A DNA stretch of 64,000 nucleotides. Source: Thelephora terrestris. Lineage: Eukaryota; Basidiomycota; Agaricomycetes; Thelephorales; Thelephoraceae. The stretch spans positions 4,508,094 through 4,572,093 of the forward strand of contig WIUZ02000001.1 of assembly GCA_015956445.1 (NCBI GenBank). The letters run 5' to 3'. Below are positions 1,811 through 64,000 of this stretch, piece after piece. The position numbers were made by a program, and so were the translations under genes. The notes below the pieces were generated by a model, which was given only the letters and a program-made list of their open reading frames with translations, was not told the DNA's origin and made no database searches. The first letter of the stretch is position 1; each line of letters begins with the position of its first letter.

Positions 1811-2131
1811 TTATGATAATGCACATAAGGTAGCTGCAATACCTTGAACAGCATAGTCTTGAGAAAAGTCAAATCCTATGTCTTGGAGGAGATATTCGAT
1901 GTGCCGTACAAATGACTCGTCGGTTTGCCCTACCATAAGGCATATAGACCAGGGGGCGCAGCGATGATGAATGAGGAATATTCGGTTATTGTTGTTTCCT
2001 AACTGATCGACCATTGTCCGTAAGCGGGTGCGTTCGCTTTCGTTACAATATAGGTAGCAGAAAAGTTCGAGAGGGGTTGTCCAGTAAGTATCCAATCCTT
2101 GTGGATTTACGTGGTAGTGGATGATTTGCAT
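1811..2131 (-). CDS. Small element-encoded protein G5 (106 aa), left copy
   Basis: A single-exon ORF starting MQIIHYHVNPQ. It shares the common pattern of the G2-G5 set: an N-terminal N/DP...W, then LFCYLYCNESERTRL, FLIHHRCAP and a C-terminal ESFVRHIEYLL segment. I do not recognise a known family. It is the last gene before the 3' LTR. The copy at 62563 lacks one T (GGATTTGAC here, GGATTGAC there) and so has a different C-terminal tail. No signal peptide or membrane segment is evident. Confidence 0.6.
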   Translation of the reverse strand: MQIIHYHVNPQGLDTYWTTPLELFCYLYCNESERTRLRTMVDQLGNNNNRIFLIHHRCAPWSICLMVGQTDESFVRHIEYLLQDIGFDFSQDYAVQGIAATLCALS

Positions 2132-2377: not shown

Positions 2378-2798
2378 CTAACCAGCGCGGACTCGTTGTT
2401 CGGTGGCTAGCCTATCATTAATTAAATCTACGAACTCGTCATCACTGAGGTAGATATCAAGGCGTAATGGTGGGTTAAGGAGGGGGTGGACAATGTAGGT
2501 AGTGTCCCATCCTGTGAGCAGGATGTCTTCGGATATTTTACGGAGGAGGCGCCTGGCGCTCTGGTTTTGCTGGAGGTATTCGAGGACGTCTTCGGGGTTT
2601 GCCCAGTTTAATCCCATGTAGTCGACTACAAGGATTTCTTCGTAGAAATAGGGGTGGTGGTGTACCTTCCAGGGCGTTTCCCAGGAAAGGCTGAGCGCGC
2701 GTCAAAAATCTTGATAAAAAATACGTAAGAAAAAGAGCGTACGTGCTTCTCCATTGGCGGGTGCAGGGGTCTAAAATAAAGCAGTGTTGCGTGTCCAT
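2378..2798 (-). CDS. Small element-encoded protein G4, two exons, left copy
   Basis: Exon 1 is 2743-2798 (starts MDTQHCFILDPCTRQW) and exon 2 is 2378-2690. They are separated by a 52-bp intron with GTACGC donor and CTCAG acceptor in phase 2. The spliced frame runs through VVDYMGLNWANPEDVLEYL, YIVHPLLNPPLRL and DEFVDLINDRL to TAG, 122 aa by prediction. It is collinear with G3, including the position and phase of the intron, so the two are paralogues by duplication of a spliced gene. The family is unrecognised. It is predicted to be a soluble, helical small protein. Confidence 0.68.
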
Positions 2799-3200: not shown

Positions 3201-3636
3201 TTAAACGTTCCCAGAGTACTTGTCTGCTACCCTCTTTAAAGTATCCAGCCGTATAGTAACCTTGCGTAATATACTTTCCTCGCTGTCATGGGGGCCAAGG
3301 ACTAGGGGTACCTCGAAAAGGGGGTGGACGATGTACATTACTCCTGCTCCTTGATACATGTAAGTCCAAGCTTGACGTGAGATCAGTTTTCGGGCGCTTT
3401 TCTTGGTCTTTAAGTATTCCAGGGCTTCGACGTCAGTCTTCCAGCCCTGTCCCATGTAATCGATGAGAGGTACGGTGTCGTATCTGTTGTACTCGTCTGA
3501 GCTTGGTGGGGTAGGGTTGATACTGGGGCCGATTTGAGGTCAGAGTGTCAAAATGTTGTGGATAGCGTAGAACTTACGCTAGTTCCCATTGATGTGTTTT
3601 GGGATCTTGAACGTAGTAAACCAATTTTACTCCCAT
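3201..3636 (-). CDS. Small element-encoded protein G3, two exons, left copy
   Basis: Exon 1 is 3578-3636 (starts MGVKLVYYVQDPKTHQWEL) and exon 2 is 3201-3522. The 55-bp intron has GTAAGT donor, a CTGAC branch site and CCCCAG acceptor in phase 2. The spliced product is 126 aa with the segments VPLIDYMGQGW, ALEYLKTKKSARKLI, MYIVHPLFEVPLVL and EESILRKVTIRL. These align segment by segment with G4. Preservation of frame across a textbook intron argues that this is a real gene. No known domain is recognised. Confidence 0.7.
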
Positions 3637-3887: not shown

Positions 3888-4184
3888 TTAAGATGGGCGA
3901 CAATGAGGGGAGGGAAGATTAAGGGACTTCTGGTACTCGATTTGCTCAATAAAAAATTCCTTGGTGGTTGTGGGGTGGAGAAGGAACGGGCATTCAAGGA
4001 TTTCGTGATATACCCAAATACTCTCCCAGGTAACTTGGCGTTGATTGTTGGCCTTCTTGAAAATTTGCTGACGTACGTTCGGATTTTCAAGGAGGTAGTC
4101 GAGGATGTCAATGGGGGTTTGAGGCTTCATGTTAGAGGGAATAGGGATGATGACGCAGTCCCCATTAGTGAAACCAAAGTCCAT
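3888..4184 (-). CDS. Small element-encoded protein G2 (98 aa), left copy
   Basis: The ORF starts MDFGFTNGDCVIIP and contains IDILDYLLENPNVRQQI, VYHEILECPFLL and EFFIEQIEYQ. This is the same order of motifs as G3-G5 (xxLxYL, Y/F-I-V-H/E-x5-P-L/F-x-L, then an acidic helix). The open frame extends upstream to 4370, but the internal ATG fits the alignment best. Whether it has a 5' exon like G3 and G4 could not be settled. The family is unrecognised. Confidence 0.55.
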   Translation of the reverse strand: MDFGFTNGDCVIIPIPSNMKPQTPIDILDYLLENPNVRQQIFKKANNQRQVTWESIWVYHEILECPFLLHPTTTKEFFIEQIEYQKSLNLPSPHCRPS

Positions 4185-6290: not shown

Positions 6291-6418
6291 CGGAGTTCGG
6301 ATCAGAGGTTTGACCAAATCCGATCCGGGTGACTGAGATTAGAATAAGTGTTTTGATGGCGCGCGCGATAATGAAAACGTCAGAGATGGGGCTGGGAGAT
6401 TACGAGTTCGTTCTTACT

Positions 6419-49326: not shown

Positions 49327-49360
49327 CTTGAGAAATATAATCAGAGAATATGAAATACAG
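49327..49360 (-). other. 3' half of the Plavaka intron that received the retrotransposon
   Basis: Minus-strand CTGTATTTC...CTGAT...CTCAAG. With 245-269 and one copy of CTGT this gives a 55-bp GT-AG intron with a CTGAT branch site, in phase 0. Confidence 0.8.
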
Positions 49361-49427
49361 TGTCGGACATGAGAACAACCATGTCATTATTTATGATAAT
49401 TCACCACAGCAAGATTAGATTAGATTT

Positions 49428-49464
49428 GATAACAGTCTTATCAGATAAGATAAGATTAGATAAG
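49428..49464 (+). promoter_or_regulatory. GATA-motif cluster in the LTR
   Basis: TGATAA, CTTATCAGATAAGATAAG and AGATAAGG give at least four WGATAR sites on both strands directly before the GAA array. GATA factors govern nitrogen and light responses in fungi. Binding here is inferred. Confidence 0.4.
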
Positions 49465-49468
49465 GACA

Positions 49469-49563
49469 AGAAACTCATGGAAAGTTACAGAATGTTACAG
49501 AATGTTCAGGAACACCCTGGAATGCGCCGGAACATCCTGGAACTTGCCGGAATGTTCTAGAAG
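49469..49563 (+). promoter_or_regulatory. Heat-shock-element-like array, 19 pentamers in 5-bp register
   Basis: Read in steps of five, every odd pentamer is nGAAn (AGAAA, GGAAA, AGAAT, AGAAT, GGAAC, GGAAT, GGAAC, GGAAC, GGAAT, AGAAG). Two even ones are nTTCn (GTTCA, GTTCT) and two more are GTTAC. This is the geometry of gap- and step-type heat-shock elements bound by HSF trimers. It is present in all four LTR copies. Confidence 0.65.
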
Positions 49564-49639
49564 GTGACGGAACGTCACACCCCATGTGACACCGGTCACA
49601 CCTTTCGTGACATTTTGTCACACTTGTGACACCTGTCAC
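49564..49639 (+). promoter_or_regulatory. Alternating GTGAC / GTCAC array
   Basis: Eight pentamers alternate strictly: GTGAC at 49564, 49586, 49607 and 49626, and GTCAC at 49574, 49595, 49617 and 49635, spaced 9-12 bp. This yields several overlapping inverted repeats such as TGTGACACCGGTCACA. It is a probable transcription-factor array, factor unknown. Confidence 0.6.
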
Positions 49640-49674
49640 ACCATTAATTACCATAGAATACAGTAGAAGGACAT

Positions 49675-49694
49675 AGAACGTTCTAGAATATTCT
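49675..49694 (+). promoter_or_regulatory. Perfect four-unit heat-shock element
   Basis: AGAACGTTCTAGAATATTCT is nGAAnnTTCnnGAAnnTTCn without a mismatch, 12 bp before the TATA box. It is preserved at 1405-1424, 12131-12150 and 63269-63288. Confidence 0.7.
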
Positions 49695-49706
49695 CACATG
49701 GAAAAG

Positions 49707-49714
49707 TATATAAA
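49707..49714 (+). promoter_or_regulatory. TATA box of the LTR promoter
   Basis: TATATAAA just after the heat-shock element. It is followed by a pyrimidine-rich stretch (CCCCTCTCTCTCTCTACCC) that is a likely start region. Confidence 0.6.
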
Positions 49715-50340
49715 GAACTCACCCCCAGTTCTAAGGAAAGAAAACTCACCCATAACCTTTTACCCCTCTCTCTCTCTACCCAACAGCTGTTGGCCACTGG
49801 CCAGTAGTTGCCCCCTCTATCCCCTCTTCTCTCTATAACTCACCCTCTTTTACTCTACCCCTTTTCACCAAGACCCTACTTTGCCTCACCTCCTTAGGCC
49901 TGAGTGGTTGAGTGATTTTCAGTAATCACATACCATTTTGAGCCCCACCTCTGTGTGAATAAGTTCTAAGTTTGGACTTCTGAATAAGCTTAGTACACTT
50001 GACTCTGTGACGTAGCAATATCCTTATCTCTGTTAGTGCTGAAGGCAGACCCTTCAGGCAGAGAGTATTCTACCTCAGACTAGTGACTGACTAGGTGACA
50101 GACACATTTAGTAATAGTACCACATTGGTATCCGACGTATCAGTATCTCAGACATATCAAGAAGTTTATCTTATCAAGACAGGTTCTCAAGTTTCAGCAG
50201 TATCAAGTTATCAGACGTATCTCAGCAGCATTTGGACGTACCTCAGCAGTATATTGACAGATCATCAAAACTACTCAGACATATCAGCACAGCCTCAGAA
50301 GTATTAGCACAGCCACCCCCTTAACACAGCCACAGCACAG

Positions 50341-50438
50341 CCACTTACACAGCCACAGTGCACAGCATTCTACACAGCCTTCTTCACAGCCACTTACACA
50401 GCCACAGTGCACAGCATTCTACACAGCCTTCTTCACAG
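50341..50438 (+). repeat. Two 49-bp tandem repeats in the LTR
   Basis: The unit starts CCACTTACACAGCCACAGTG and is rich in CACAGCC. Short H/S/Q-rich ORFs over it are repeat translations. Confidence 0.75.
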
Positions 50439-50831
50439 CCTCATACACAGCCTCGATTGTATCAGTTTCACACATCATTATCTCCATTCCCGATCATCAG
50501 CGTAGATCAGGAACGCCATTCTTATCAAGATCAGCAACCCCCTTTACATTCTTACTAGGTGTTTGGACCAGGGAATATACGTGCAGTAGTGATAAAGGTT
50601 ACTGAACCCCTCTGAACACATCTGAAGGACCTACAACCTCCTTCAGCGAACTCATCAGGACAAGGAGCCGGAAAGTACGAAACCCCGCCCACCCTGTGGA
50701 GTTGATAGTCGGGATAACTGACTTCTCAACCAGCCTACTTAGTTGTTAACGCTTAGCTTCTAAGTAAACCAAGAAGGACTAGTAAGAGTTCTTATAGACC
50801 TCTTCACTACAACCCCAGCGAACTCGACATC

Positions 50832-50849
50832 TGGAGCCCACGGCGAGGG
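50832..50849 (+). other. Primer-binding site, right element
   Basis: TGGAGCCCACGGCGAGGG starts two bases after the LTR, as in the left copy. A tRNA-Cys primer is inferred from the U discriminator. Confidence 0.55.
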
Positions 50850-50936
50850 GCTTCAATAAAACACCATCTTATCACCACAAACACCATTCCCACCATCACA
50901 CCTTCATCTCCCTCCATCTCCTCTACATCAACCAAC

Positions 50937-53900
50937 ATGACTTATATCTCAGATACAGAAAACGAACAACATCCCTTCAATGGAGTTGAAGACCTCCTTA
51001 CTCAATCAAATTCCTACTTGGAATTACCAGCCCCCAACAAATCACGTGCACCAGAAACCTTCACAGGAGCTGCCAATACCTTGGAGCCCTTCTTGGAGAA
51101 TTATAACCACCTATGCAACCGCTATGACGTCACCTCATCAAAAGAAAAGTACCAAGGACTCATTCGATACTGTAGCCCTGGAATCGCTAACCTGCTGCGA
51201 ACTTGGCCTTCCCATGCCAAAAGGGACTATGGAACTCTATTGGTTGAGCTCGATTACTTCTTTGGGGACAAGCAAGGATCCCTGAATGTGGGAAAAATTG
51301 AAGCCTTCACTACCAAATGGAGAAAACGTCGAATGGATACCCTGGACAGATTCAAGAAATACCAAATCAAATTCCATCAGTTGGTAGGACGTGCCAGAGA
51401 AATGAGGAAGATCTCCACTAGAGATGTCAATAGATATTTCTGGGAAGGATTGAATGCCTCTTTCAGGCGACAAGTTGAAGCCCAGATGAGGATGGTCACG
51501 CCTCACTTAGATGTGACAGTGCCATTCAGCATTGCAGACATAGTAGAAGGAGCTGATTCAGTCCTTAACCCTTATAGGTTTGATCAGCACCTGGCAACTA
51601 AAGGCGGATACCAGTCCTCTGAAGAAGAAGAGTCAGACCAAGAGGAATCCACTAAGCCATTTAAGCTCTCAGGATATAACTCAGAAGACGAATCAGATGA
51701 TGAACCAAAGCCTCTTATCCAACACAAGTCACCCCTGACTCCACCTAAATCTCCTCCTAAGTTACCCACAAAGACCAAGAAGCACAAAGGAAAGCAGGAT
51801 GAAGACTTCAACCAGCTAGTGGACGACCTGAGTAACCTCAAGATTGATGACCCCAAGTACTGGGTCAAATATGTACACTTTGCTCAGCAGTACCCACATC
51901 TCCAGAATTACGTAGAACCTCCTCCTAACCGAAACTCAGCAAGACCAAATCAACCTAGAAGACCATTCCAGAGGGATCTACCACCTCATCAGAACTTTGG
52001 CAACCAACAATTCACCAACCCCCAGTCACGACAAGGACCAAATCCCTCCTATCGACCACCTTTCAATCCATCACCCCAGAGAATGTCTCAACCCCCTCCT
52101 CAAAGTTTCTCTATGGCAACAGGCCCCAACGCAATCGGACAGAACTACACCTGTTTTGGTTGTGGACAGCAAGGTCACCACATTAGGGCATGTGAGGAAA
52201 TAAACAAATTGGTAAAAGCTGGGAAGATAGTAAAGGACCCAACGTCAGGACGGTTACAGTGGCCTGACAACTCAAGAATCTACCGAGCACCTAATGAGAC
52301 ATGGATACAAGCTATTACTAAACATGTTGCAGCTGAAGTCCATTATGCTGAAGCCTTGCCATACAACCCTACTTTGGAAACTGCATGTAACTACATAGGA
52401 GTGGATAGGTATGAAGACGATGCTGATACTGATGAACAAGAAGCGGAATTAGGATGGACCTCTGGGGAGGTAGAACACTGTCAAGCTTTTGGTGTTGAAA
52501 GGACCACCCAAATCAGCAAGGAACACAGGAAGAAGGTACAGCAAGTCTTACCTAGCCGACCCCAAGGGATGGAGAAGCTCCCCAGGAGCAGGGAAGCAAA
52601 GAGTCCTGGTAGGCCACAGCACCCAATCAAGAATCACGTCAATCTTAACAGCAACCAGACGGGGAACATCCGGTCTGCCTCTAACCCCAACAAGGGCGTA
52701 ATTAAAGGTAAAACGGACAACCAGTTGCTTCCAATGGAGGTTGACCAGGAGGTCACTGCAAAGCCTACTAACTACAATAGGAAGGACTCGGCGCATTTGG
52801 AGCAAACCAATGGTCCCAAAGTCACTAATCCCAGGACTACCAAGAAGCCAGACAGTTCAGCAATTGCCACTAAAATACTAAACACCAACATTACCCTAAC
52901 TGTACAGGAAGCAATCGATGCTGCGCCTTCTTTGCGACGAGGCCTTGTGAGCGCAATGAAACAAGGGCATGAGGTCTCTGTCCCAATGCAGCAGAAAATT
53001 GGCCTCCTCGCCGAGGTGATTGAAAAGGAAGAACAGCAACCATTTCAAGCTGTAGTCCAGGAACAATCAGAAGATGAAGAAGACTATGATCAAGAAGATG
53101 AAACAGACCTTGTGGAGCCTACGGTAACAGTGCCCAGGGATGGATTGATCAAGATACCAGTCAATGTGGCAGGGACTATGATGACTGGAGTCTTTGACAG
53201 TGGATCCCAACTCAACATTGTTAATCAAAGGTTAATAGAAGCAGCAGGCATACCTTGGTCCAACGCCGAGGAACACAGGATTCCGATGATGTCAGTTGAC
53301 GGAAATCTCTCCCAATGTGCAGGAATGATACCTTGTGCAGAGATGACAATGAAGACTACAAAAGGAAGAGTTATGGCACCCGGAAATCTCTACGTAAAAA
53401 AGAATGCAGGATTTCAGCTACTGCTTGGAAGAGAATGGGGTGTAGACCATAAAGCCACTTGGATAGAAGATGGTAGGAATTCTCATTTGAGAATTATTAC
53501 CAATAAAGGTTGGCGAAAAATCAGACCCCTTCCCTCTACATATGGATCTCGGGACAATGAAGAAAACAACAAAAATTATAGGTATCAACCACAGGATTAC
53601 CAGGCAAGAGTATACGCAATAGGAGGAAATAAAGAAATTGAAGAAGGCGAGGTACCGGACAGCGAGGAAGAAGAAGGAAGCCTCGTGATCAGAAGTAATA
53701 TGGCCGGCGTCGAAACGGAAGCCCTGGAGGAAAGAGAAAATGATTTTATTTACTCACCAGTAACGATCGCGAGAGAAGACCCACCGACGCCCGCGCAACG
53801 ACGCGAAGCGCTAGTGCTTGATGAAGACGACAGAAGAAGCGAGACAGATGATGAAATCGGACGGATCGGGACGGAAGAAGATCTACGGAAGCTGGAGGAA

Positions 53901-54854
53901 ACACGCGCGGAAAAGGGGACGGAAGTATATTCGGACGAAGATATAAATAAACAGTCGAACGAAAATACCATTAGTTCGGACCTGTACGAAACATATATTA
54001 AAATGGTCCGGAAAGGAGCTTCCAACGAAGAATGGAATGCATTGTGTGAACTCGAACGAAAGAAAGCCATGCGCGACCAGAAGCCGTGGACAAGGCTATG
54101 TAGCGAAGACTTAGAGAATGAAGATAGGGCCGCAACGAACGACCCTGACCCATACGAAACCGAAGTATCTACGCCACCCCACCCGGAAAACCCTCAACCC
54201 TCTCAAACTCTCGCTACCCCTGAACCGGATCCGCCCTCAACCCTACCAACCTCCCGGAAACGAAAATGGAACCTACAGGAAGAAAATCAGTCCACCATCG
54301 CCAAGGTAACGCGAACACGGCGTACGAGACGACTTACCGAGAAGGCCCAAGGAGACGAATTCCGAAGGTACATGCAATCGTGCGAACGAAGGGAGCACCG
54401 GGAACAAAGGAGAACCGGAGGCCGTGAACGATCAGTGGCCGTAGAAGCCTGCGTGTTTGCAACGGAAGCAGTACTAGGGAACCAGAATGCAGACCTAGAT
54501 AGCACAGACAATGAGTGGGTAAACGAGTGGGAGACCGAATTCAATAGATCCGCACTTACCGACATGGAAAAACCTCCAGAACTGAGAAGAATGGACATGG
54601 ATGGGTCAGACGACCTGGAATCCAGCCCAAATAGCCCTGGTGGGCCAGACGAAGAAGACGATGAAAGGTCTAATCAACAAAAATTACCGATCACGGAAAA
54701 CACAAAAACGACATATCCGAACTTACTGACACAAGAAACGTATGGAGACCGATGGGAATGGAAAGAGATGGGTCAAACGACCCAGGATCCAGTCCGAATA
54801 ACCTCGAGGGACCCAGCGTTGACGAAGAAGAAAGTTCTGTGGAATCAAGGTTAA
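50937..54854 (+). CDS. Gag-protease polyprotein, right copy, truncated by frameshift (1305 aa)
   Basis: It has the same gag domain, CCHC knuckle (residues 406-419) and DSG protease (D754) as the left copy, and is essentially the same protein up to DDERSNQQK. There an A-run of five (54679-54683) replaces six, and translation leaves the frame for about 57 codons before a stop. The downstream part of the polyprotein continues in the frame of 54752-58273. Either a programmed +1/-2 event or RNA/polymerase slippage on the A-run, or simple inactivation, could explain it. Confidence 0.85.
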   Translation: MTYISDTENEQHPFNGVEDLLTQSNSYLELPAPNKSRAPETFTGAANTLEPFLENYNHLCNRYDVTSSKEKYQGLIRYCSPGIANLLRTWPSHAKRDYGTLLVELDYFFGDKQGSLNVGKIEAFTTKWRKRRMDTLDRFKKYQIKFHQLVGRAREMRKISTRDVNRYFWEGLNASFRRQVEAQMRMVTPHLDVTVPFSIADIVEGADSVLNPYRFDQHLATKGGYQSSEEEESDQEESTKPFKLSGYNSEDESDDEPKPLIQHKSPLTPPKSPPKLPTKTKKHKGKQDEDFNQLVDDLSNLKIDDPKYWVKYVHFAQQYPHLQNYVEPPPNRNSARPNQPRRPFQRDLPPHQNFGNQQFTNPQSRQGPNPSYRPPFNPSPQRMSQPPPQSFSMATGPNAIGQNYTCFGCGQQGHHIRACEEINKLVKAGKIVKDPTSGRLQWPDNSRIYRAPNETWIQAITKHVAAEVHYAEALPYNPTLETACNYIGVDRYEDDADTDEQEAELGWTSGEVEHCQAFGVERTTQISKEHRKKVQQVLPSRPQGMEKLPRSREAKSPGRPQHPIKNHVNLNSNQTGNIRSASNPNKGVIKGKTDNQLLPMEVDQEVTAKPTNYNRKDSAHLEQTNGPKVTNPRTTKKPDSSAIATKILNTNITLTVQEAIDAAPSLRRGLVSAMKQGHEVSVPMQQKIGLLAEVIEKEEQQPFQAVVQEQSEDEEDYDQEDETDLVEPTVTVPRDGLIKIPVNVAGTMMTGVFDSGSQLNIVNQRLIEAAGIPWSNAEEHRIPMMSVDGNLSQCAGMIPCAEMTMKTTKGRVMAPGNLYVKKNAGFQLLLGREWGVDHKATWIEDGRNSHLRIITNKGWRKIRPLPSTYGSRDNEENNKNYRYQPQDYQARVYAIGGNKEIEEGEVPDSEEEEGSLVIRSNMAGVETEALEERENDFIYSPVTIAREDPPTPAQRREALVLDEDDRRSETDDEIGRIGTEEDLRKLEETRAEKGTEVYSDEDINKQSNENTISSDLYETYIKMVRKGASNEEWNALCELERKKAMRDQKPWTRLCSEDLENEDRAATNDPDPYETEVSTPPHPENPQPSQTLATPEPDPPSTLPTSRKRKWNLQEENQSTIAKVTRTRRTRRLTEKAQGDEFRRYMQSCERREHREQRRTGGRERSVAVEACVFATEAVLGNQNADLDSTDNEWVNEWETEFNRSALTDMEKPPELRRMDMDGSDDLESSPNSPGGPDEEDDERSNQQKLPITENTKTTYPNLLTQETYGDRWEWKEMGQTTQDPVRITSRDPALTKKKVLWNQG

Positions 54855-57800
54855 CCGATCACGGAAAACATGAAGAAAACATATCGGGACTTACCACGCG
54901 GTACGGGAAACTTGAAACAATTCACGAAGAATGGAATGGGTCAGACGACCCAGGATCCAGGCCGAATAGACTTGAGGAGTTGAGCACGGACGAAGAAGAC
55001 GAGAATGAAGAACAGTGGTTACCCGATCGCGAAAGATACAGGCCTAACATATCGAGACTTACCTCGAAAGGAAACCTATCGGCAGAGAGCAATGACCCCA
55101 ACAACAATCACGAATGGACCGTATGGGATCCAGAAGACGGCACGGCCATCCCGGAAAATGCAAAGGCAGTGCAAGGAATAACGGAAGAAAGGGAACCTCA
55201 CCGAACAGGAACCGAAGACGAAAACAAGAAGTCAAAAAGGCGCCAGGCACCGAATGACGCAACGGTCGGAACCGGTAGTCAATCATTACCCGGAGGTAAC
55301 CATGCCGTGTATGGGGAACAATACCGACAAGACCCGCGGGAAGCCGGATTGGACATTCTACGCGAATATCCGGATGCGTTTAATTACAATCCAGACAATA
55401 ACAACATAGAACAAACATACGTACCGGAACCGTCGGAACCTGCAGTGCCGAAAAAGCGGATAAGGGTCTTCGGCTCAGAATTCAAGAGCAAAACACCCGA
55501 GGACAACGAAGTAAGGTGGAATGTAATGGAGCAGGATGAGCTGGAAGGAGTGCTAGATGAATTGAGTAGGGACCCGATGGTCGCGAATGAAGAAATAAGA
55601 ACTTACACAATTAGTAAATCGGACGACGGAACAATCGAAGTCCGACGCGGGCTACCTGCGAAGAATGGAGGTAACGGGCCCTCAACCCAGGATCCAGAGA
55701 AATCTAACCAAGGAAAGGAGGATAAAGAAGTCAGTGACACCGACGAGGAAACGAAGAAAGCAGAAGAAGAAACACTTACCAAATTAGGAAGTGACCCACA
55801 GACTTCCGATCACGCGTCTGAGTCTGAGGCCCACATGGAACGGAAAAAGGGCTCGGAAACGTGCACAACCGGTGGAGACCCTGTAGAAACCTTTGTACAC
55901 CTAGAAAAGGATAGGACCACCAAGGAAATAAAATTATTGGGAGCACCAGAAGGTATAAAAGAGGTCGAACGCACCTTGGACAAAATATCACCAAAACTCA
56001 AGGATCAACCCCAAGATTCAGTCAAGACGGAGCCCACCTCAAATGGTGAGTGTTGTTGTGGTTGTCGGAAGTGTCCTGCAGCTAACAATCCTCAACAGCA
56101 GTCCCGAAACGACCCTCGAAGGGTAGTCAGCCTAGTCCGACCAAGCCCAAACCACGACTTACCAGGGCGAAGCGACCACCAAATGGAAGAGGTAATGGAC
56201 GTCGAAATCCCATCTCCAGAAAACCAAGTTCCCGGACTGTTAGCGGCGGCCCACCTTGTCCAGCTAGAAGAGAGTATGTTACCCCCCGGAGATCACTCGT
56301 TCTTCGCGTTCGGCGCAACGCTACTAGGAGGCGAAGGCCCCTCCCAATACGTACGCCAGGGACAAGCCTATGTCCGCCTTTACGCCTCAAGCTCGGCCAA
56401 CCTCAATGACCCACCGAGGCCACCGCCGACGTCCCGCGTAGTTAACGCACACGTCCAAGTCTTTGCGTCGGATGCGCCAGCCGGACCGGAACCCCAAGAG
56501 AACTTAGCAGTTCCACACAATACCCCCTTTCACGACCAGTCAGTTACCCGCAACGTACACTTACCTGATTCAGCGCCGCCGTACAGATTCCCGGAAGTAC
56601 CAGTCGAAGACAAGGCCGACGAACCGATGACGGTGGACAGTGTCCTAGACAAGTTACGAGACGTCGAAGGAAGTGCCGACCCCACAAAGAAGTCCATCAA
56701 AGAAGCTCCCGATCTGGGGAAATTGAGTAAGCGACCAACTGGCATATCCCAAAATCGCGAGATAACGAAAAATGACTTAGCCTTGAGAGAGCCCGAGCCA
56801 CCTTTGCCCAATCAGAACGAAAGGACCACCTCGGATGTCCACGTAGCAAGGTCGTTTGCGGCCGGAATAATCCAGGCAAGTGACATGTCTAAAAATCCAG
56901 AAAACCGACATATGAGTACATTGAATCCGCAGGTCGATATCGAAGAACCCGGAAACCCACCTATTGCAGTTCTAGATCCCTCTATGGATCTCGCCCCAGA
57001 TTCTCCACCAATGCTATACTACCCGGACGACATCGAAACCGACGAACTCTCCGAAGATCACGAGAAACTGCCGGACGCCAAGGATCACCAAGCAGAACTC
57101 AAGGCGTGGTCAAGATTGTACCCTGCTACCTTTGATTCCCCGCCCGAGGAACCGCCCTCGTCACCCGTAGAAAACGAGCAGGCTCTGGAACGAATTCAAG
57201 CAAATCTAAGTTTTTTAGCACCATACCTCGAACGCCTCCAGAGCCGGAAGAATCGCCGTGAAGTCCTCGAATGCCTCGGTGAACTCGGACTCCTCCAGTT
57301 GACATACGAAATGACGAAGGACAACCTGGAGGGAGTTCAGCAAAAACGCGAATACTGGGGAGGAGAAATAGGGAAAGTTTTGTTCAACCGAAGGGAACAC
57401 ATCGCAACTTACCTTGAAGCAAAGCGCCGTGAAGAAGCCCTGAAACCGGCCACGTCCGACCCCCTGATCAAGGAAGAATCACCCGAAGTACTCTCGAAAA
57501 CTCTGGGTAATCATCTTGCCGAGATTACGTCTAACGTACCGAAGGTTCAGCAAATCACGCCCGCGCCAGGACCCGGATTTGAAGACCTTGAAGACGTCAA
57601 ACAGCAGATCGTGGTACTCGAAGAACGGATCGAGGGAACGACAAGCGACTTAACGACCCGGTTGAGGGAGCTCGAAAATCAGGTATACACAGACGGATGT
57701 TTACTCACCGAACTCAACTGGAGGTCGAACGAGTTGAAGAAGCAGGAGAACAGAGTCCGAGCTGATAAGAAAAGGTCCTGGAAGAACAATCCGAGGGCAA

Positions 57801-58273
57801 ACCACCGCTATGAGACCCGGTCCGTAACTGCGAACTCAAACGAAAGAGCAAACGAGGTACGGAAGCAGCTGTCACAATTGACAGATCAGATCAAAGCGCT
57901 CGAAGTCAAAGTCGAGACCCTGCGCGTCGAATTGAGATCTGTCAAAGATAAGCTCGATCAAGTTCTGGCGCTAGAATTCGAAGTCAAGAAGCTCGCCAAA
58001 ACCGTTGAGGATCAGCGCAAGGCTCAAGGCGACATGAACAGTGTCCTAATGTCGGAGATCGCGTCCCTCAAGTTCGCCATCGGACCCAGCGTCGAACACC
58101 AACTCAAGCAACACGGCCTCGAAATTACCGCCCTCACCACTCGTTACCAGCAACTCTATCAAGTCGCCCTTCACCTTCTTTACCCGGACAACGCCGCCAA
58201 CTCGAACGCAAGCTACGCCACCCATGCAAACCACCCTTCCTATGTTAACAATAAATCGGTCGGTGTTTTCTAA
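54752..58273 (+). CDS. C-terminal polyprotein part (1173-aa ORF) after the frameshift
   Basis: This is the frame that is continuous with gag-pro in the left copy. It starts with the 50-55 aa tandem repeats (LTDHGKHEENISGLT, SDDPGSRPN). A segment absent from the left copy follows: EYPDAFNYNPDNN, a Cys-rich patch GECCCGCRKC near residue 432, and AAHLVQLEESMLPPGDHSFF. The end is a long coiled coil (VKQQIVVLEERIEG ... LSQLTDQIKALEVKVE ... EVKKLAKTVED) and the common terminus TTRYQQLYQ. No polymerase, RNase H or integrase motif (no YxDD, no HHCC/DDE) was seen. It is probably translated only by frame slippage or is silent in this copy. The function is unknown. A structural or RNA-packaging extension of gag is possible. 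Confidence 0.7.
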   Translation: MGMERDGSNDPGSSPNNLEGPSVDEEESSVESRLTDHGKHEENISGLTTRYGKLETIHEEWNGSDDPGSRPNRLEELSTDEEDENEEQWLPDRERYRPNISRLTSKGNLSAESNDPNNNHEWTVWDPEDGTAIPENAKAVQGITEEREPHRTGTEDENKKSKRRQAPNDATVGTGSQSLPGGNHAVYGEQYRQDPREAGLDILREYPDAFNYNPDNNNIEQTYVPEPSEPAVPKKRIRVFGSEFKSKTPEDNEVRWNVMEQDELEGVLDELSRDPMVANEEIRTYTISKSDDGTIEVRRGLPAKNGGNGPSTQDPEKSNQGKEDKEVSDTDEETKKAEEETLTKLGSDPQTSDHASESEAHMERKKGSETCTTGGDPVETFVHLEKDRTTKEIKLLGAPEGIKEVERTLDKISPKLKDQPQDSVKTEPTSNGECCCGCRKCPAANNPQQQSRNDPRRVVSLVRPSPNHDLPGRSDHQMEEVMDVEIPSPENQVPGLLAAAHLVQLEESMLPPGDHSFFAFGATLLGGEGPSQYVRQGQAYVRLYASSSANLNDPPRPPPTSRVVNAHVQVFASDAPAGPEPQENLAVPHNTPFHDQSVTRNVHLPDSAPPYRFPEVPVEDKADEPMTVDSVLDKLRDVEGSADPTKKSIKEAPDLGKLSKRPTGISQNREITKNDLALREPEPPLPNQNERTTSDVHVARSFAAGIIQASDMSKNPENRHMSTLNPQVDIEEPGNPPIAVLDPSMDLAPDSPPMLYYPDDIETDELSEDHEKLPDAKDHQAELKAWSRLYPATFDSPPEEPPSSPVENEQALERIQANLSFLAPYLERLQSRKNRREVLECLGELGLLQLTYEMTKDNLEGVQQKREYWGGEIGKVLFNRREHIATYLEAKRREEALKPATSDPLIKEESPEVLSKTLGNHLAEITSNVPKVQQITPAPGPGFEDLEDVKQQIVVLEERIEGTTSDLTTRLRELENQVYTDGCLLTELNWRSNELKKQENRVRADKKRSWKNNPRANHRYETRSVTANSNERANEVRKQLSQLTDQIKALEVKVETLRVELRSVKDKLDQVLALEFEVKKLAKTVEDQRKAQGDMNSVLMSEIASLKFAIGPSVEHQLKQHGLEITALTTRYQQLYQVALHLLYPDNAANSNASYATHANHPSYVNNKSVGVF
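56046..56098 (+). other. Intron-like sequence inside the C-terminal ORF
   Basis: GTGAGT donor, GCTAAC branch site and CAACAG acceptor, 53 bp, as good as any intron in the window. Both reading-through and splicing give open frames. Splicing shifts to a frame of about 105 basic residues (starting VPKRPSKGSQPSPTKPKPR) before a stop. Confidence 0.5.
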
Positions 58274-59688
58274 AGTAAGAACGAACTCGTAATCTCCCAG
58301 CCCCATCTCTGACGTTTTCATTATCGCGCGCGCCATCAAAACACTTGTCTATTCTAATCTCAGTCACCCGGATCGGATTCGGTCAAGCCTTTGATCCGAA
58401 CTCCGGTTCCTGAACCCGTCTTCCGCTGGTAAGCGAAAAGTCTTTCACTCCGCTCCCCACATCCCTCACCTTTCTCCTTCCTGCCTTCTACCATCTCTCT
58501 CTTTCCCCTTCGGAACCTGGCGAACCGACTGGCCGTCCAACTCTACGACGTTTGCCACCCTCCGCGTGGTCTCCCGTTCGCTCGTTTACTCCCGGTACAC
58601 TCCTCGCGTCGACCGCGTCACGCCTCAAACACACCTTGCCTCTCGACCTTCGACACCTCCGCCTTTACCCCTGCCTCCCTCAAAACTCTCTTTTCTCAAT
58701 CCGCCGACCCCAACCTACAATTTCCAACCATTTTCACGCCGAACGGCCGCCTCCAGCAGCACCAATCCCTCTCTCCTTTTCCTCTCTCTCGTCTTTGCCT
58801 ACTCCCCTTGCCTTTCTCTCCCCTCCCTCTCAAATCTCACCTCTTCGCACAAATCGGCACCCTCTCAGTCCCAGGTCTCCCCAACATCTTGAAGTCTAGC
58901 AAAAATTTGGAGGGACAACGGGTTTCTGCTGAGTAGATCTTGCCTGTTTTCTATACCCTCTCCCTTTCTCTCTCTCGTCCCTCACCCCGTTTCAAATTGC
59001 CTCTCGCGTATATTCTGACGTCTATTACTTTCCTCCTAGCCTCGTCCTGACAAGCAGCGAGCCTCTCCCCTTTCCCCGGACTCACTAACCTCCGCGACGT
59101 CAAGACTCGTTGCCTCTCAAGACCTCCTTCCTCTCTCTCGACCAGCCGAGTTCTGCGAACTCGCGCCTCAAGACCGTCTCCTCCGCCCTCTTCCTTCCAT
59201 CGACCCCACCTTATCTTCTCACCGCCCGTATACGCCGCCCACTCTTTCCATATACCTCGAGCGTTCACTTCCCTCCCGACTTTATTTTTCCTTCCCACCT
59301 ACTTCCCCACTCCCACTTCCTTTTCTCCTTCCGTCGCTTGACCGCCGCCCCGCCGTCTACATACCCCGCGCGTCGTCTTTTTGTTTAAAAATTTTTCCGG
59401 ACTCTACCCCACCTCCGTCGATCGATACACTCGTGTTCCCTATCCCGTGTCCCGATTTGTCTTTCCGCCCGCCCCTCCCCTAATAGCTAGCTTATTCTCC
59501 TTTGCGTACGGTCTCGAGCGTCCCCGCCGGACTTTTTCTCAGTTGATAAGATTACTCACTATCTACCCGTACCCAATCAGAGACTTTAGTTAGTTCCCTC
59601 TAACTTCGCCTGATCAGTGAACAGCCCCGCAATTCGTTGGTAAGTTTTTCTCCTCTGAAAAACTTTCGAACCGGTGAACTTTGTCTTC

Positions 59689-59703
59689 AAAAGTTCCCCG
59701 CGG
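59689..59703 (+). repeat. 15-mer AAAAGTTCCCCGCGG, first internal copy
   Basis: It is exact to 59734-59748 and 62939-62953. Confidence 0.7.
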
Positions 59704-59733
59704 TTGTGCGTCGTCTGGTAACTCCACTCCGAA

Positions 59734-59748
59734 AAAAGTTCCCCGCGG
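59734..59748 (+). repeat. 15-mer AAAAGTTCCCCGCGG, second internal copy
   Basis: It starts 45 bp after the first copy. Confidence 0.7.
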
Positions 59749-60510
59749 CCTCATTCTTGTTCCTCCTCATTTTTTTTCTTGATCTCGATTTTTCCGCCTC
59801 TTCCCTGGCATATTCTTCCCTCAATTATTTTTTTTCCCACGACTGCTACACCCTCCAATCAACGTGCCGTTTCCTCAATTTCTGTTTAAATTCGCTCGCT
59901 CTCTCCCTCAATTAAATTAGACTACATCCCTCCCACCCACCCTTTATTTTTCCCTCCCCCCCTGCGCTTTATATCTTTTTTTTCTTCTCTTTCTTTTTTT
60001 TTCCGTTCATTGTGGGTACCTGTGGGTACAGGTGATTTTATGAAAAACATATTGTTAGAAGCACCATGACCCACAAATTTGCTAAGCCACCACCTTCTCT
60101 ACTAAACACTCCCAACGAAATTATGCCCCACACAAACACATGAAGACAGGTCTACGTATGTCAAATGGAACACATCAAGGAAAAAAGAGAATTGCATGGA
60201 ATTATGTCAATTATGTCATTCAGTTTAATCTAAATAAGGTAACCACCGCCCAATCACAGAACCTAATCAAGAAGCAGAGCGCTCAACGGCGACATCCCCT
60301 TTTCCTCACCCCTACTTATTCCAGTTGCTCCGCCACTCCACGCTCTTTGCCCTCCCCTCTTTCCAAACAGAACCTGACCAAAAGGTAGGACTCCTAACAA
60401 TTCCCTCCTACCTTGAATGCCCTACCTCACCTTACCTCTGCATCTCAGCCAGTCATTTGTTCACCCTTTCGAAGCCATCTCACCGTCACCCTTTCCCCCC
60501 CTACCACAAA

Positions 60511-60807
60511 ATGGACTTTGGTTTCACTAATGGGGACTGCGTCATCATCCCTATTCCCTCTAACATGAAGCCTCAAACCCCCATTGACATCCTCGACTAC
60601 CTCCTTGAAAATCCGAACGTACGTCAGCAAATTTTCAAGAAGGCCAACAATCAACGCCAAGTTACCTGGGAGAGTATTTGGGTATATCACGAAATCCTTG
60701 AATGCCCGTTCCTTCTCCACCCCACAACCACCAAGGAATTTTTTATTGAGCAAATCGAGTACCAGAAGTCCCTTAATCTTCCCTCCCCTCATTGTCGCCC
60801 ATCTTAA
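60511..60807 (+). CDS. Small element-encoded protein G2 (98 aa), right copy
   Basis: Same protein as 3888-4184. First of the four-gene set. Motifs are IDILDYLLENPN, VYHEILECPFLL and EFFIEQIEYQ. The open frame extends upstream to 60325. An ATG at 60511 is preferred by alignment to its paralogues. Confidence 0.55.
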   Translation: MDFGFTNGDCVIIPIPSNMKPQTPIDILDYLLENPNVRQQIFKKANNQRQVTWESIWVYHEILECPFLLHPTTTKEFFIEQIEYQKSLNLPSPHCRPS

Positions 60808-61058
60808 GCCTTAGTAAAAATTGCGCACATTTTAGTTGACAAACTAGTATCGGAGCATTCTTCCAATCTTATCTTTTCCCTATTAAAATTGCTACCTTGT
60901 TGGAAAAAGATAAGAATACTAGTAATTGTTTCATAAAACATGCCACGTCACGACTAAAAAACGACACGTTACAACAAACAACCTCTCACAATTTTTGTCT
61001 TTGTGTCCACCTTCCATATTCCCACTCAGCACACCCAGAAACCTACACATCGGAAATC

Positions 61059-61494
61059 ATGGGAGTAAAATTGGTTTACTACGTTCAAGATCCCAAAACA
61101 CATCAATGGGAACTAGCGTAAGTTCTACGCTATCCACAACATTTTGACACTCTGACCTCAAATCGGCCCCAGTATCAACCCTACCCCACCAAGCTCAGAC
61201 GAGTACAACAGATACGACACCGTACCTCTCATCGATTACATGGGACAGGGCTGGAAGACTGACGTCGAAGCCCTGGAATACTTAAAGACCAAGAAAAGCG
61301 CCCGAAAACTGATCTCACGTCAAGCTTGGACTTACATGTATCAAGGAGCAGGAGTAATGTACATCGTCCACCCCCTTTTCGAGGTACCCCTAGTCCTTGG
61401 CCCCCATGACAGCGAGGAAAGTATATTACGCAAGGTTACTATACGGCTGGATACTTTAAAGAGGGTAGCAGACAAGTACTCTGGGAACGTTTAA
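61059..61494 (+). CDS. Small element-encoded protein G3, two exons, right copy
   Basis: Exons 61059-61117 and 61173-61494, intron GTAAGT...CTGAC...CCCCAG of 55 bp in phase 2. Spliced product 126 aa, identical in layout to the left copy. Shared motifs with G4: VQDPKTHQW / ILDPCTRQW in exon 1, and DYMGxxW, EYL, SAR and YIVHPL in exon 2. Confidence 0.7.
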
Positions 61495-61896
61495 TTACCC
61501 TATGTACGGTATTCCCTACCTTGCCACCCCTATATTTACGACGCCCCATTATTCCCTTCCCCTTCGTTCGTTCAACCAAGGAATAAACGGACTTTTCATC
61601 ATTCATACATTTCATCATCTCATCATGGGACTTCCGATGATGACACCCTTTTCCAGTTCACCAAGCCATCAAACTTTATTTTAGTATATCACAATGTTTC
61701 GATCGAGACCCTGGTGCCTCCTTCTTTTCGGCACCGGATCATTACTTATTACGTATATGGCTTCCTTCTTCCCCACGTTTAATATTTGTCATTCGCATTG
61801 CTTCACCAGCATGTTCCTCTCGCTTTCCTTTCTCTTTCTCCCTTCCCCTAGTTCTTATCCCCCCCCAGAACACTGCTTACTCTACGGTGTACCCTC

Positions 61897-62317
61897 ATGG
61901 ACACGCAACACTGCTTTATTTTAGACCCCTGCACCCGCCAATGGAGAAGCACGTACGCTCTTTTTCTTACGTATTTTTTATCAAGATTTTTGACGCGCGC
62001 TCAGCCTTTCCTGGGAAACGCCCTGGAAGGTACACCACCACCCCTATTTCTACGAAGAAATCCTTGTAGTCGACTACATGGGATTAAACTGGGCAAACCC
62101 CGAAGACGTCCTCGAATACCTCCAGCAAAACCAGAGCGCCAGGCGCCTCCTCCGTAAAATATCCGAAGACATCCTGCTCACAGGATGGGACACTACCTAC
62201 ATTGTCCACCCCCTCCTTAACCCACCATTACGCCTTGATATCTACCTCAGTGATGACGAGTTCGTAGATTTAATTAATGATAGGCTAGCCACCGAACAAC
62301 GAGTCCGCGCTGGTTAG
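61897..62317 (+). CDS. Small element-encoded protein G4, two exons, right copy
   Basis: Exons 61897-61952 and 62005-62317, intron GTACGC...CTCAG of 52 bp in phase 2. The exon 2 frame runs from LSWETPWKV through VVDYMGLNW and YIVHPLLNPP to TAG. Preceded by a CT-rich run (61820-61870) and, further up, by AATAAA at about 61581, which could end the G3 transcript. Confidence 0.68.
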
Positions 62318-62562
62318 GAACTACACACATGTACTTCGCCTCACCTACACCACCATGCAGATGACATCATGAGAAAATGTCGACCTAAATAAGGAAAGAC
62401 GGACCCACAAATTGTCATAACACAAGAATTGGCGTCTCAACTCGACTGGACCCACACACACACAACCCAAAAAAGGAGTTGACGTAGTTACAAACCGAGT
62501 CTGCCAGCGCATCACCTTCAACGGCAAAACCATCTCACTATCACACCCTACCTCTCCTTCAC

Positions 62563-62886
62563 ATGCAAATCATCCACTACCACGTAAATCCACAAGGATT
62601 GGATACTTACTGGACAACCCCTCTCGAACTTTTCTGCTACCTATATTGTAACGAAAGCGAACGCACCCGCTTACGGACAATGGTCGATCAGTTAGGAAAC
62701 AACAATAACCGAATATTCCTCATTCATCATCGCTGCGCCCCCTGGTCTATATGCCTTATGGTAGGGCAAACCGACGAGTCATTTGTACGGCACATCGAAT
62801 ATCTCCTCCAAGACATAGGATTGACTTTTCTCAAGACTATGCTGTTCAAGGTATTGCAGCTACCTTATGTGCATTATCATAAATAA
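62563..62886 (+). CDS. Small element-encoded protein G5, right copy (altered C-terminus)
   Basis: As 1811-2131 up to EYLLQDIG, then a one-base deletion changes the last about 17 residues. The core pattern FLIHHRCAP...ESFVRHIEYLL is intact. It ends 68 bp before the 3' LTR. Confidence 0.55.
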   Translation: MQIIHYHVNPQGLDTYWTTPLELFCYLYCNESERTRLRTMVDQLGNNNNRIFLIHHRCAPWSICLMVGQTDESFVRHIEYLLQDIGLTFLKTMLFKVLQLPYVHYHK

Positions 62887-62938
62887 GTCACTATTGTTCT
62901 AGACTAGTTGGGATGATTGCGATCAGGGACGATCGTTT

Positions 62939-62953
62939 AAAAGTTCCCCGCGG
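62939..62953 (+). repeat. 15-mer AAAAGTTCCCCGCGG at the 3' LTR border
   Basis: One base before the LTR. No purine-rich tract is present at this border. Confidence 0.7.
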
Positions 62954-62954
62954 A

Positions 62955-64000
62955 TGTCGGACATGAGAACAACCATGTCATTATTTATGATAATTCACCA
63001 CAGCAAGATTAGATTAGATTTGATAACAGTCTTATCAGATAAGATAAGATTAGATAAGGACAAGAAACTCATGGAAAGTTACAGAATGTTACAGAATGTT
63101 CAGGAACACCCTGGAATGCGCCGGAACATCCTGGAACTTGCCGGAATGTTCTAGAAGGTGACGGAACGTCACACCCCATGTGACACCGGTCACACCTTTC
63201 GTGACATTTTGTCACACTTGTGACACCTGTCACACCATTAATTACCATAGAATACAGTAGAAGGACATAGAACGTTCTAGAATATTCTCACATGGAAAAG
63301 TATATAAAGAACTCACCCCCAGTTCTAAGGAAAGGCAACTCACCCATAACCTTTTACCCCTCTCTCTCTCTACCCAACAGCTGTTGGCCACTGGCCAGTA
63401 GTTGCCCCCTCTATCCCCTCTTCTCTCTATAACTCACCCTCTTTTACTCTACCACCTTTTCACCAAGACCCTACTTTGCCTCACCTCCTTAGGCCTGAGT
63501 GGTTGAGTGATTTTCAGTAATCACATACCATTTTGAGCCCCACCTCTGTGTGAATAAGTTCTAAGTTTGGACTTCTGAATAAGCTTAGTACACTTGACTC
63601 TGTGACGTAGCAATATCCTTATCTCTGTTAGTGCTGAAGGCAGACCCTTCAGGCAGAGAGTATTCTACCTCAGACTAGTGACTGACTAGGTGACAGACAC
63701 ATTTAGTAATAGTACCACATTGGTATCCGACGTATCAGTATCTCAGACATATCAAGAAGTTTATCTTATCAAGACAGGTTCTCAAGTTTCAGCAGTATCA
63801 AGTTATCAGACGTATCTCAGCAGCATTTGGACGTACCTCAGCAGTATATTGACAGATCATCAAAACTACTCAGACATATCAGCACAGCCTCAGAAGTATT
63901 AGCACAGCCACCCCCTTAACACAGCCACAGCACAGCCACTTACACAGCCACAGTGCACAGCATTCTACACAGCCTTCTTCACAGCCACTTACACAGCCAC
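62955..64000 (+). repeat. 3' LTR of the right element, partial
   Basis: The first 1046 bases of the LTR lie inside the window. The array of GAA pentamers (about 63063-63157), the perfect heat-shock element (63269-63288) and TATA box are preserved. Confidence 0.93.

What the first reader, a model, noticed from the sequence alone, without database searches (positions are those of the whole stretch)
60511..62886. A retrotransposon-borne cluster of four paralogous small genes of unknown family
G2-G5 lie in tandem downstream of gag-pro in both element copies. They share an ordered pattern: a short N-terminal (Y/F)xxDPxTxxW segment, an (E/D)YL helix followed by SAR-type basic residues, a (Y/F)IVHPLxxxPLxL core, and an acidic DEEF/EESI helix. 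G3 and G4 also share an intron at the same place and phase. LTR elements normally carry gag, pro, pol and sometimes env-like ORFs. A set of spliced, duplicated small genes kept open in an element that lacks pol is unusual and suggests an accessory function for the element, such as packaging, silencing defence or helper recruitment.
Basis: partly seen in the sequence, partly recalled or inferred. Interest (0 to 1): 0.92.

Follow-up and report, generated by a model that had tools for sequence, protein, structure and literature searches.

The report
Accessory gene family of fungal retrotransposon
A family of jumping elements in an ectomycorrhizal fungus carries three or four small, related and partly intron-containing genes of unknown fold next to its usual genes, and natural selection has kept them working, much as complex retroviruses keep accessory genes.

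Summary
G2-G5 are real, homologous, protein-coding genes of a Ty3/Gypsy LTR element in Thelephora terrestris. In the host genome, 20 of 20 RT-bearing loci of this RT class have accessory genes about 3-7 kb downstream; three sampled sister elements have none in 2.4-2.6 kb after pol. Families A/B carry four genes, C1/C2 three. Of 11 chosen pairs 9 show significant purifying selection (NG86 0.11-0.40); wrong-frame controls give 0.70-1.91. G3, G4 and the C-family G3/4 gene share a phase-2 intron at one place; in G4 its length is 51-55 nt over 12 of 12 copies read while the spliced frame stays open, strong comparative evidence for splicing. NCBI annotates the same spliced G3. Two pol-less families keep the genes and moved recently. 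No PDB match, no Pfam match below E 0.001, no transmembrane-like segment; organism-named relatives only in T. terrestris. Best guess: proteins acting on the element's own RNA, working like Cer1 CERV (inferred, about 0.35). New protein family, new variant of a known kind.

The parts
60511..60807 (+). G2, 98 aa, no intron
   Evidence: ORF; 98-100% in the 4 family-A copies, 33-43% to C-family G2; dN/dS 0.40 A vs C1, 0.22 C1 vs C2
61059..61494 (+). G3, 126 aa spliced; exon 1 61059-61117, intron 61118-61172 (phase 2), exon 2 61173-61494
   Evidence: identical to NCBI protein BJ322DRAFT_1103921, whose contig has the length of this one (P0010)
61897..62317 (+). G4, 122 aa spliced; exon 1 61897-61952, intron 61953-62004 (phase 2), exon 2 62005-62317
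   Evidence: a relative is annotated with the same length (P0012)
62563..62886 (+). G5, 107 aa; shared core 62563-62820, last ~20 aa altered by an indel in this copy
1811..2131 (-). G5 of the inverted copy (106 aa)
2378..2798 (-). G4 of the inverted copy
3201..3636 (-). G3 of the inverted copy
3888..4184 (-). G2 of the inverted copy
49361..50829 (+). 5' LTR of copy 2 (TGTCGG...CGACA)
50937..54854 (+). gag-pro ORF, 1305 aa; CCHC knuckle and aspartyl-protease-like region (both below Pfam cut-offs)
54752..58273 (+). ORF2, 1173 aa, coiled-coil-like C-terminus, overlaps the gag end in another frame
60066..60089 (+). pol start codon and the next seven codons, all that is recognisable of pol
   Evidence: compared with L009/L010
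62955..64000 (+). 3' LTR of copy 2, cut by the end of the contig

Best explanation
G2-G5 are a paralogous family of small accessory genes at the place where env would be (pol to 3' LTR) of an autonomous-type Ty3/Gypsy lineage in Thelephora terrestris: LTR, gag-pro, ORF2, pyrimidine-rich stretch, pol, G2, G3, G4, G5, LTR. SHOWN by computation: homology, purifying selection in most comparisons, an intron conserved in place and phase, presence at 20 of 20 RT-bearing loci of the RT class, retention in two families with different pol deletions. INFERRED: because the introns survive reverse transcription, the RNA that is packaged must leave the nucleus unspliced while G3/G4 proteins need spliced RNA; the most likely job of these soluble proteins is to act on the element's own RNA (nuclear export, splicing balance or packaging), preferring the RNA they came from, which would explain why pol can be borrowed in trans while these genes are kept. 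Confidence: anatomy about 0.93, RNA-regulator mechanism about 0.35.
For: 20 of 20 RVT_1 hits of this class lie upstream of accessory genes on the same strand, about 3.3-7.2 kb start to start. RT, RNase H, H2C2 and rve above Pfam cut-offs in two read relatives, SH3_Tf2-1 below. Sister elements: 0 of 3 sampled. dN/dS: G3 0.12, C-family G3/4 0.12, G5 0.18-0.22, G2 0.11-0.40, Fisher p 1e-3 to 2e-10; wrong frames 0.70-1.91 in 6 pairs. Intron at the same place and phase in G3, G4, C1 and C2; G4 intron 51-55 nt in 12 of 12 copies read with exons in frame. Pol-less A (4 loci) and B2 (3 loci) keep the genes; LTRs are 100% identical in W1, 99.9% in B2_C3. No 19-residue mean above 1.41 Kyte-Doolittle in 8 proteins. 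CERV, from a spliced Cer1 mRNA, is required for genomic RNA export (PMC10309623; abstract, sections 6 and 15 read).
Against: No expression, localisation or binding data. Charge is inconsistent (pI 4.9 to 10.5). G2 and G5 have no intron. Family-A copies are so young that retention may be only lack of time. Not significant: G2 B_C16 vs B_C59b 0.57, p 0.23; G4 A vs B 0.40, p 0.07. G2 of type B against other G2 types gave 0.54-1.12 (saturated, about 22% identity), G3/4 within C2 0.48-0.61 on few changes, and two G5 pairs 0.38-0.44. Some copies are broken: stops in G2 of B_C2b and G3 of B_C7 and B_C2b, no open spliced G3 in A_C5.
Confidence: 0.4

Rival explanations
1. The proteins counter host silencing (RNAi, DNA methylation or other genome defence), and the paralogues diverged in an arms race.
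For: Several paralogues; G5 differs more between A/B elements (62-100% aa) than G3 does (98-100% in 13 copies).
Against: G5 divergence is mostly synonymous (dN/dS 0.18-0.22), which points to recombination between old alleles rather than diversifying selection; no suppressor domain found.
Confidence: 0.2
2. They are particle or cell-to-cell transmission proteins in the env position.
For: Position between pol and 3' LTR; a small accessory protein of insect MDG1 elements acts in cell transfer (PMC11952523, abstract and section 7 read).
Against: No transmembrane-like segment in 8 of 8 proteins by hydropathy (signal peptides not tested); insect sORF2 is transmembrane and lies upstream of gag.
Confidence: 0.12
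3. Captured host genes that ride along, with a host-level or neutral role.
For: Small spliced genes annotated as ordinary hypothetical proteins; one decayed locus (C1:159909) shows no LTR, gag or pol match within 8 kb.
Against: The other accessory-gene hits lie in this element lineage or its fragments, and C1:159909 holds a broken G4-like gene before G2, as an element relict would; no intact host progenitor seen. Selection persists across families.
Confidence: 0.12
4. Not genes: chance ORFs kept open because the copies are young.
For: Window copies are 99.9% identical here.
Against: Families far apart in sequence keep the frames, 9 of 11 chosen pairs are significantly constrained, off-frame controls are 0.70-1.91 and intron length drifts while the frame is kept.
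Confidence: 0.02

Closest known systems
CERV of Cer1, a C. elegans LTR element (PMC10309623; abstract, sections 6 and 15 read)
   Same: Extra protein of an LTR element made from spliced RNA while unspliced genomic RNA is packaged
   Different: CERV is one large protein with three structured domains; here three or four paralogous proteins of about 95-126 aa, some with a small intron of their own; sequences were not compared
sORF1/sORF2 of Drosophila MDG1-group elements (PMC11952523; abstract, section 7 read)
   Same: Small accessory ORFs (about 110 and 70 aa) with low nonsynonymous rates
   Different: Upstream of gag, full-length RNA without splicing, one is transmembrane
TRP28 ORFs of plant Retand elements (PMC11963269; abstract, discussion read)
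   Same: Conserved extra ORFs between pol and 3' LTR, function unknown, also in non-autonomous copies
   Different: Antisense to gag-pol
ORF3 genes of bdelloid LTR elements (PMC5408684, abstract)
   Same: Varied extra ORFs beside gag and pol
   Different: Env-like or enzymes; these match neither
Non-autonomous gag-only LTR elements (TR-GAG of plants; search listing, definition recalled)
   Same: gag kept, pol lost
   Different: Here ORF2 and four accessory genes are kept as well
Foamy virus layout (PMC7828637, passages)
   Same: Pol translated apart from Gag; accessory genes downstream (the latter recalled)
   Different: No env, fungal host; spliced pol RNA here only inferred from the sequence before the pol ATG

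Membership tests
Ty3/Gypsy (Metaviridae) element | Paired LTRs | tested here: met
   W1 LTRs 100% identical over 1469 nt
Ty3/Gypsy (Metaviridae) element | pol order RT, RNase H, integrase | tested here: met
   Met in relatives B_C16 and C1_C8a; the window copies have lost pol
Ty3/Gypsy (Metaviridae) element | gag with CCHC, and aspartyl protease | tested here: inconclusive
   Both found below Pfam cut-offs
Retroviral envelope or membrane fusogen | Transmembrane segment | tested here: not met
   Highest 19-residue Kyte-Doolittle mean 1.41 among 8 proteins; crude test
Retroviral envelope or membrane fusogen | Signal peptide | not tested
   No predictor at hand
CERV-like genomic RNA export factor | Made from spliced element RNA | tested here: inconclusive
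   Comparative evidence for G3/G4 introns; no RNA data; none in G2/G5
CERV-like genomic RNA export factor | Required for nuclear export of unspliced RNA | not testable with these tools
   Needs genetics
CERV-like genomic RNA export factor | Sequence or fold of CERV | not tested
   Structure prediction off; CERV sequence not compared
Retand TRP28-type extra ORF | Antisense ORF between pol and 3' LTR | tested here: not met
   All four genes are sense to gag
Known Pfam domain families | Significant match to a curated model | tested here: not met
   24 members of A1, A4, A5: best E 0.0058 (RRM_PARP14_3, 2 of 6 G2 members), others 0.025 or worse
Complex-retrovirus layout (foamy type) | pol from its own spliced RNA; internal promoter for accessory genes | not testable with these tools
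   Y tract, hairpin and CAG|GTGA before the pol ATG and CACGTCAC upstream of G3 are only suggestive

The most novel reading that the evidence does not exclude
A fungal Gypsy lineage has evolved a complex-retrovirus-like layout on its own: pol expressed apart from gag, and a set of duplicated, spliced regulatory proteins of a new fold that control export or packaging of its own RNA in cis, so that even pol-less derivatives must keep them.
Probability: 0.28. Interest if true: 0.82.

Novelty: new variant of a known kind. Interest (0 to 1): 0.62.

Why it matters
Conserved accessory genes are known in some animal and plant LTR elements; for fungi I found no description of such a paralogous set in ten searches of the held library, which lacks most subscription journals; one fungal survey labels an unexplained additional ORF (PMC2864245). 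A spliced paralogue set kept through repeated pol loss separates what an element must carry itself from what it can borrow, and makes testable how an intron-bearing element gets unspliced RNA out of the nucleus.

Tried and rejected
Chance ORFs: rejected. dN/dS from the window pair: useless at 99.9% identity. Host progenitor: no intact one seen; the one G2 hit away from an element, C1:159909, is a decayed relict. Known fold by sequence: G5 profile best PDB E 0.35, G3/4 and G2 profiles none at E <= 1; Pfam as; Rfam none in 49000-64000. Viral contigs: 24 pattern matches, none confirmed. Membrane fusogen: hydropathy against. Diversifying selection on G5: suggested by its low identity, not borne out by dN/dS near 0.2. 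Possible exceptions to the RT/accessory link: the C23:1055581 copy is cut within ORF2, the C45:2520080 copy runs into the contig end, C43 is degenerate with accessory fragments. gag relatives on C8:214771, C20:10685, C37:4111, C45:124045 and C60:709928 have no accessory hit near them and were not examined.

Sampling: G2 counted in 24 of 28 loci (C1:159909 read later, not in the counts), G5 in 20 of 28, G3 exon 2 in 14 of 14 (C43 fragments left out), G4 in 12 of 14, C-family G3/4 in 10 of the loci fetched (C2_C45 dropped because its frame is split). Stops were counted within the tblastn-aligned ranges only. The 11 pairs were chosen by me; recombination makes pairs non-independent and NG86 is saturated for the most distant ones. 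W1 and W2 count as two copies though nearly identical.

Full report
What is there. The window is the end of contig C1 (4,572,093 bases) of a 40.6 Mb genome. An NCBI protein identical to spliced G3, on a contig of that same length, names the host as Thelephora terrestris, of the Thelephorales, sequenced as an ectomycorrhizal fungus (PMC7550596, passages). Two element copies lie inverted to each other. Copy 2 reads: LTR 49361-50829, gag-pro 50937-54854, ORF2 54752-58273, about 2.2 kb of pyrimidine-rich DNA, G2-G5 60511-62886, 3' LTR from 62955.

The lineage has pol. G2, G3 and G5 were searched against the host genome. The 28 G2 loci fall into families A (window type, 4), B (6), B2 (3), C1 (7), C2 (7) and one relict at C1:159909; further fragments are on C60 and C43. 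Reading a B and a C1 copy (L009-L012) shows a pol ORF between the pyrimidine-rich stretch and G2. The RVT_1 search gave 120 hits; 20 of them span model positions 2-204 at 29-46 bits, and each of these 20 lies upstream of accessory genes on the same strand. With the B RT as query, long matches to other members are 68-100% identical and the next long RTs at most 49% (short pieces of others up to 55%, degenerate or interrupted members 55-61%). Three sampled sister elements show no accessory gene by profile search in the 2.4-2.6 kb after pol that was fetched.

Two pol-less families. In family A (4 of 4 copies) the pol ATG and seven more codons are joined to sequence close to that found just after the pol stop of B. 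In B2 (3 of 3) the break is also near the pol start but runs into a remnant of a G4-like exon 2; one of the three, B2_C2c, also lacks gag and ORF2 matches and has extra sequence between G4 and G5. LTR pairs are 100% identical in W1, 99.7% over the part of W2 held, 99.9% in B2_C3 and 99.6/96.9% over two pieces in B2_C23, so pol-less copies moved recently, presumably with RT in trans (inference). G2-G5 have no stop in the aligned ranges in 3 of 3 B2 copies. In A, one of four (A_C5) lacks an open spliced G3 and has another element inserted between G3 and G4.

Genes, not chance. NG86 dN/dS in 11 chosen pairs: G2 0.22 (C1 vs C2), 0.11 (within C2), 0.40 (A vs C1), 0.57 (within B, p 0.23); G3 0.12; G4 0.40 (p 0.07); C-family G3/4 0.12; G5 0.18-0.22. 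Nine of 11 have Fisher p of 1e-3 or less. In the wider sample, G2 of type B against other G2 types gave 0.54-1.12 (saturated, about 22% identity), G3/4 within C2 0.48-0.61 on few changes, two G5 pairs 0.38-0.44 and G4 pairs 0.17-0.36. Six pairs read in wrong frames gave 0.70-1.91. No stop in 23 of 24 G2, 12 of 14 G3 exon 2, 12 of 12 G4 exon 2, 10 of 10 C-family G3/4 and 20 of 20 G5 copies in the aligned ranges.

Splicing. G3, G4 and the single C-family G3/4 gene all allow a GT-AG intron of about 49-55 nt, phase 2, at the same place, after an exon of about 19 codons (A_C5 G3 excepted). Other acceptors are possible in G3 and in the C family. In G4 the intron measures 51, 52, 53, 54 or 55 nt in 12 of 12 copies read, so only splicing keeps exon 1 and exon 2 in frame in all. 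NCBI models give the same spliced G3 (126 aa) and a G4 of 122 aa; other models there fuse part of G2 to G3 at differing junctions and look like gene-finder artefacts (no RNA support was seen).

Paralogy. Profile comparisons and the shuffle control support one family with a common core of about 68 residues: a helix of the type ExLxYLxxNxxARxxL, a His-containing middle and an acidic C-terminal segment (alignment A6).

Distribution. Three protein searches returned 33 distinct proteins: the eight that name an organism are all T. terrestris, the other 25 name none. Nothing was confirmed in viral contigs. These searches reach close relatives best, so wider occurrence is open.

How it may work. A sense-strand intron is lost if the spliced RNA is the one copied. 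Its conservation across families suggests that unspliced RNA is packaged while spliced RNA makes G3/G4. Elements with this problem need a way to export unspliced RNA; in Cer1 CERV, from a spliced mRNA, is required (PMC10309623). Loss of pol but not of accessory genes in two families suggests that they act on the RNA that encodes them, or that their DNA holds needed cis signals. This is inference; silencing defence remains a serious rival.

Novelty. Extra ORFs in LTR elements are a known kind (PMC5408684 abstract; PMC11963269, PMC11952523, PMC10309623, parts read). [quoted passage not shown] figure not seen). In a second survey (PMC3248453, passages) the words accessory and envelope do not occur; it mentions complex elements with additional domains. 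The protein family and the spliced paralogue set appear new within what I could search.

Noticed in passing
59976-60068; L009:8912, L016:2133, L011:8870-8925: Pyrimidine tract, then a small hairpin GGGTACCTGTTGGTACAG|GTGA just before the pol ATG, conserved in A, B, B2 and, with changes, C1; looks like a splice acceptor for pol.
   Followed up: partly
60808-61058: Inverted repeat CTTATCTTTT...AAAAGATAAG between G2 and G3 in A and three C2 copies but not in four B/B2 copies; CACGTCAC upstream of G3 in A, B, B2 and one C2 copy.
   Followed up: no
59689, 59734, 62939 (+) and 1740, 4948, 4993 (-): The exact 15-mer AAAAGTTCCCCGCGG occurs twice in the pyrimidine-rich stretch and once directly before the 3' LTR of each copy, 6 times in all, 0 expected.
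   Followed up: partly
L016:2358-2483, L020, L028; L042: Remnant of a G4-like exon 2 at the place of the lost pol in three B2 copies; the relict at C1:159909 likewise has a broken G4-like gene before a G2-like ORF, a hint at an older gene order.
   Followed up: partly
6346-7145 vs 54679-58346: Inverted copy 1 lacks most of ORF2; its edges match copy 2 at 71-93% only, so it is not a simple deletion.
   Followed up: no
256-269 and 49355-49360: Copy 1 shows no matching target duplication, but its 3' flank starts ACAG and the 5' flank of copy 2 ends ACAG, as an inversion between the copies would leave; four bases may be chance.
   Followed up: partly
12810-43983: Between the two copies lie diverged duplications and 73-nt tandem repeats, not studied.
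   Followed up: no
L015-L020, window: Elements are mosaics: gag-pro of B2_C3 and B2_C23 is 70-74% identical to A while G3 and G4 are 95-99%, which points to recombination between co-packaged RNAs.
   Followed up: partly
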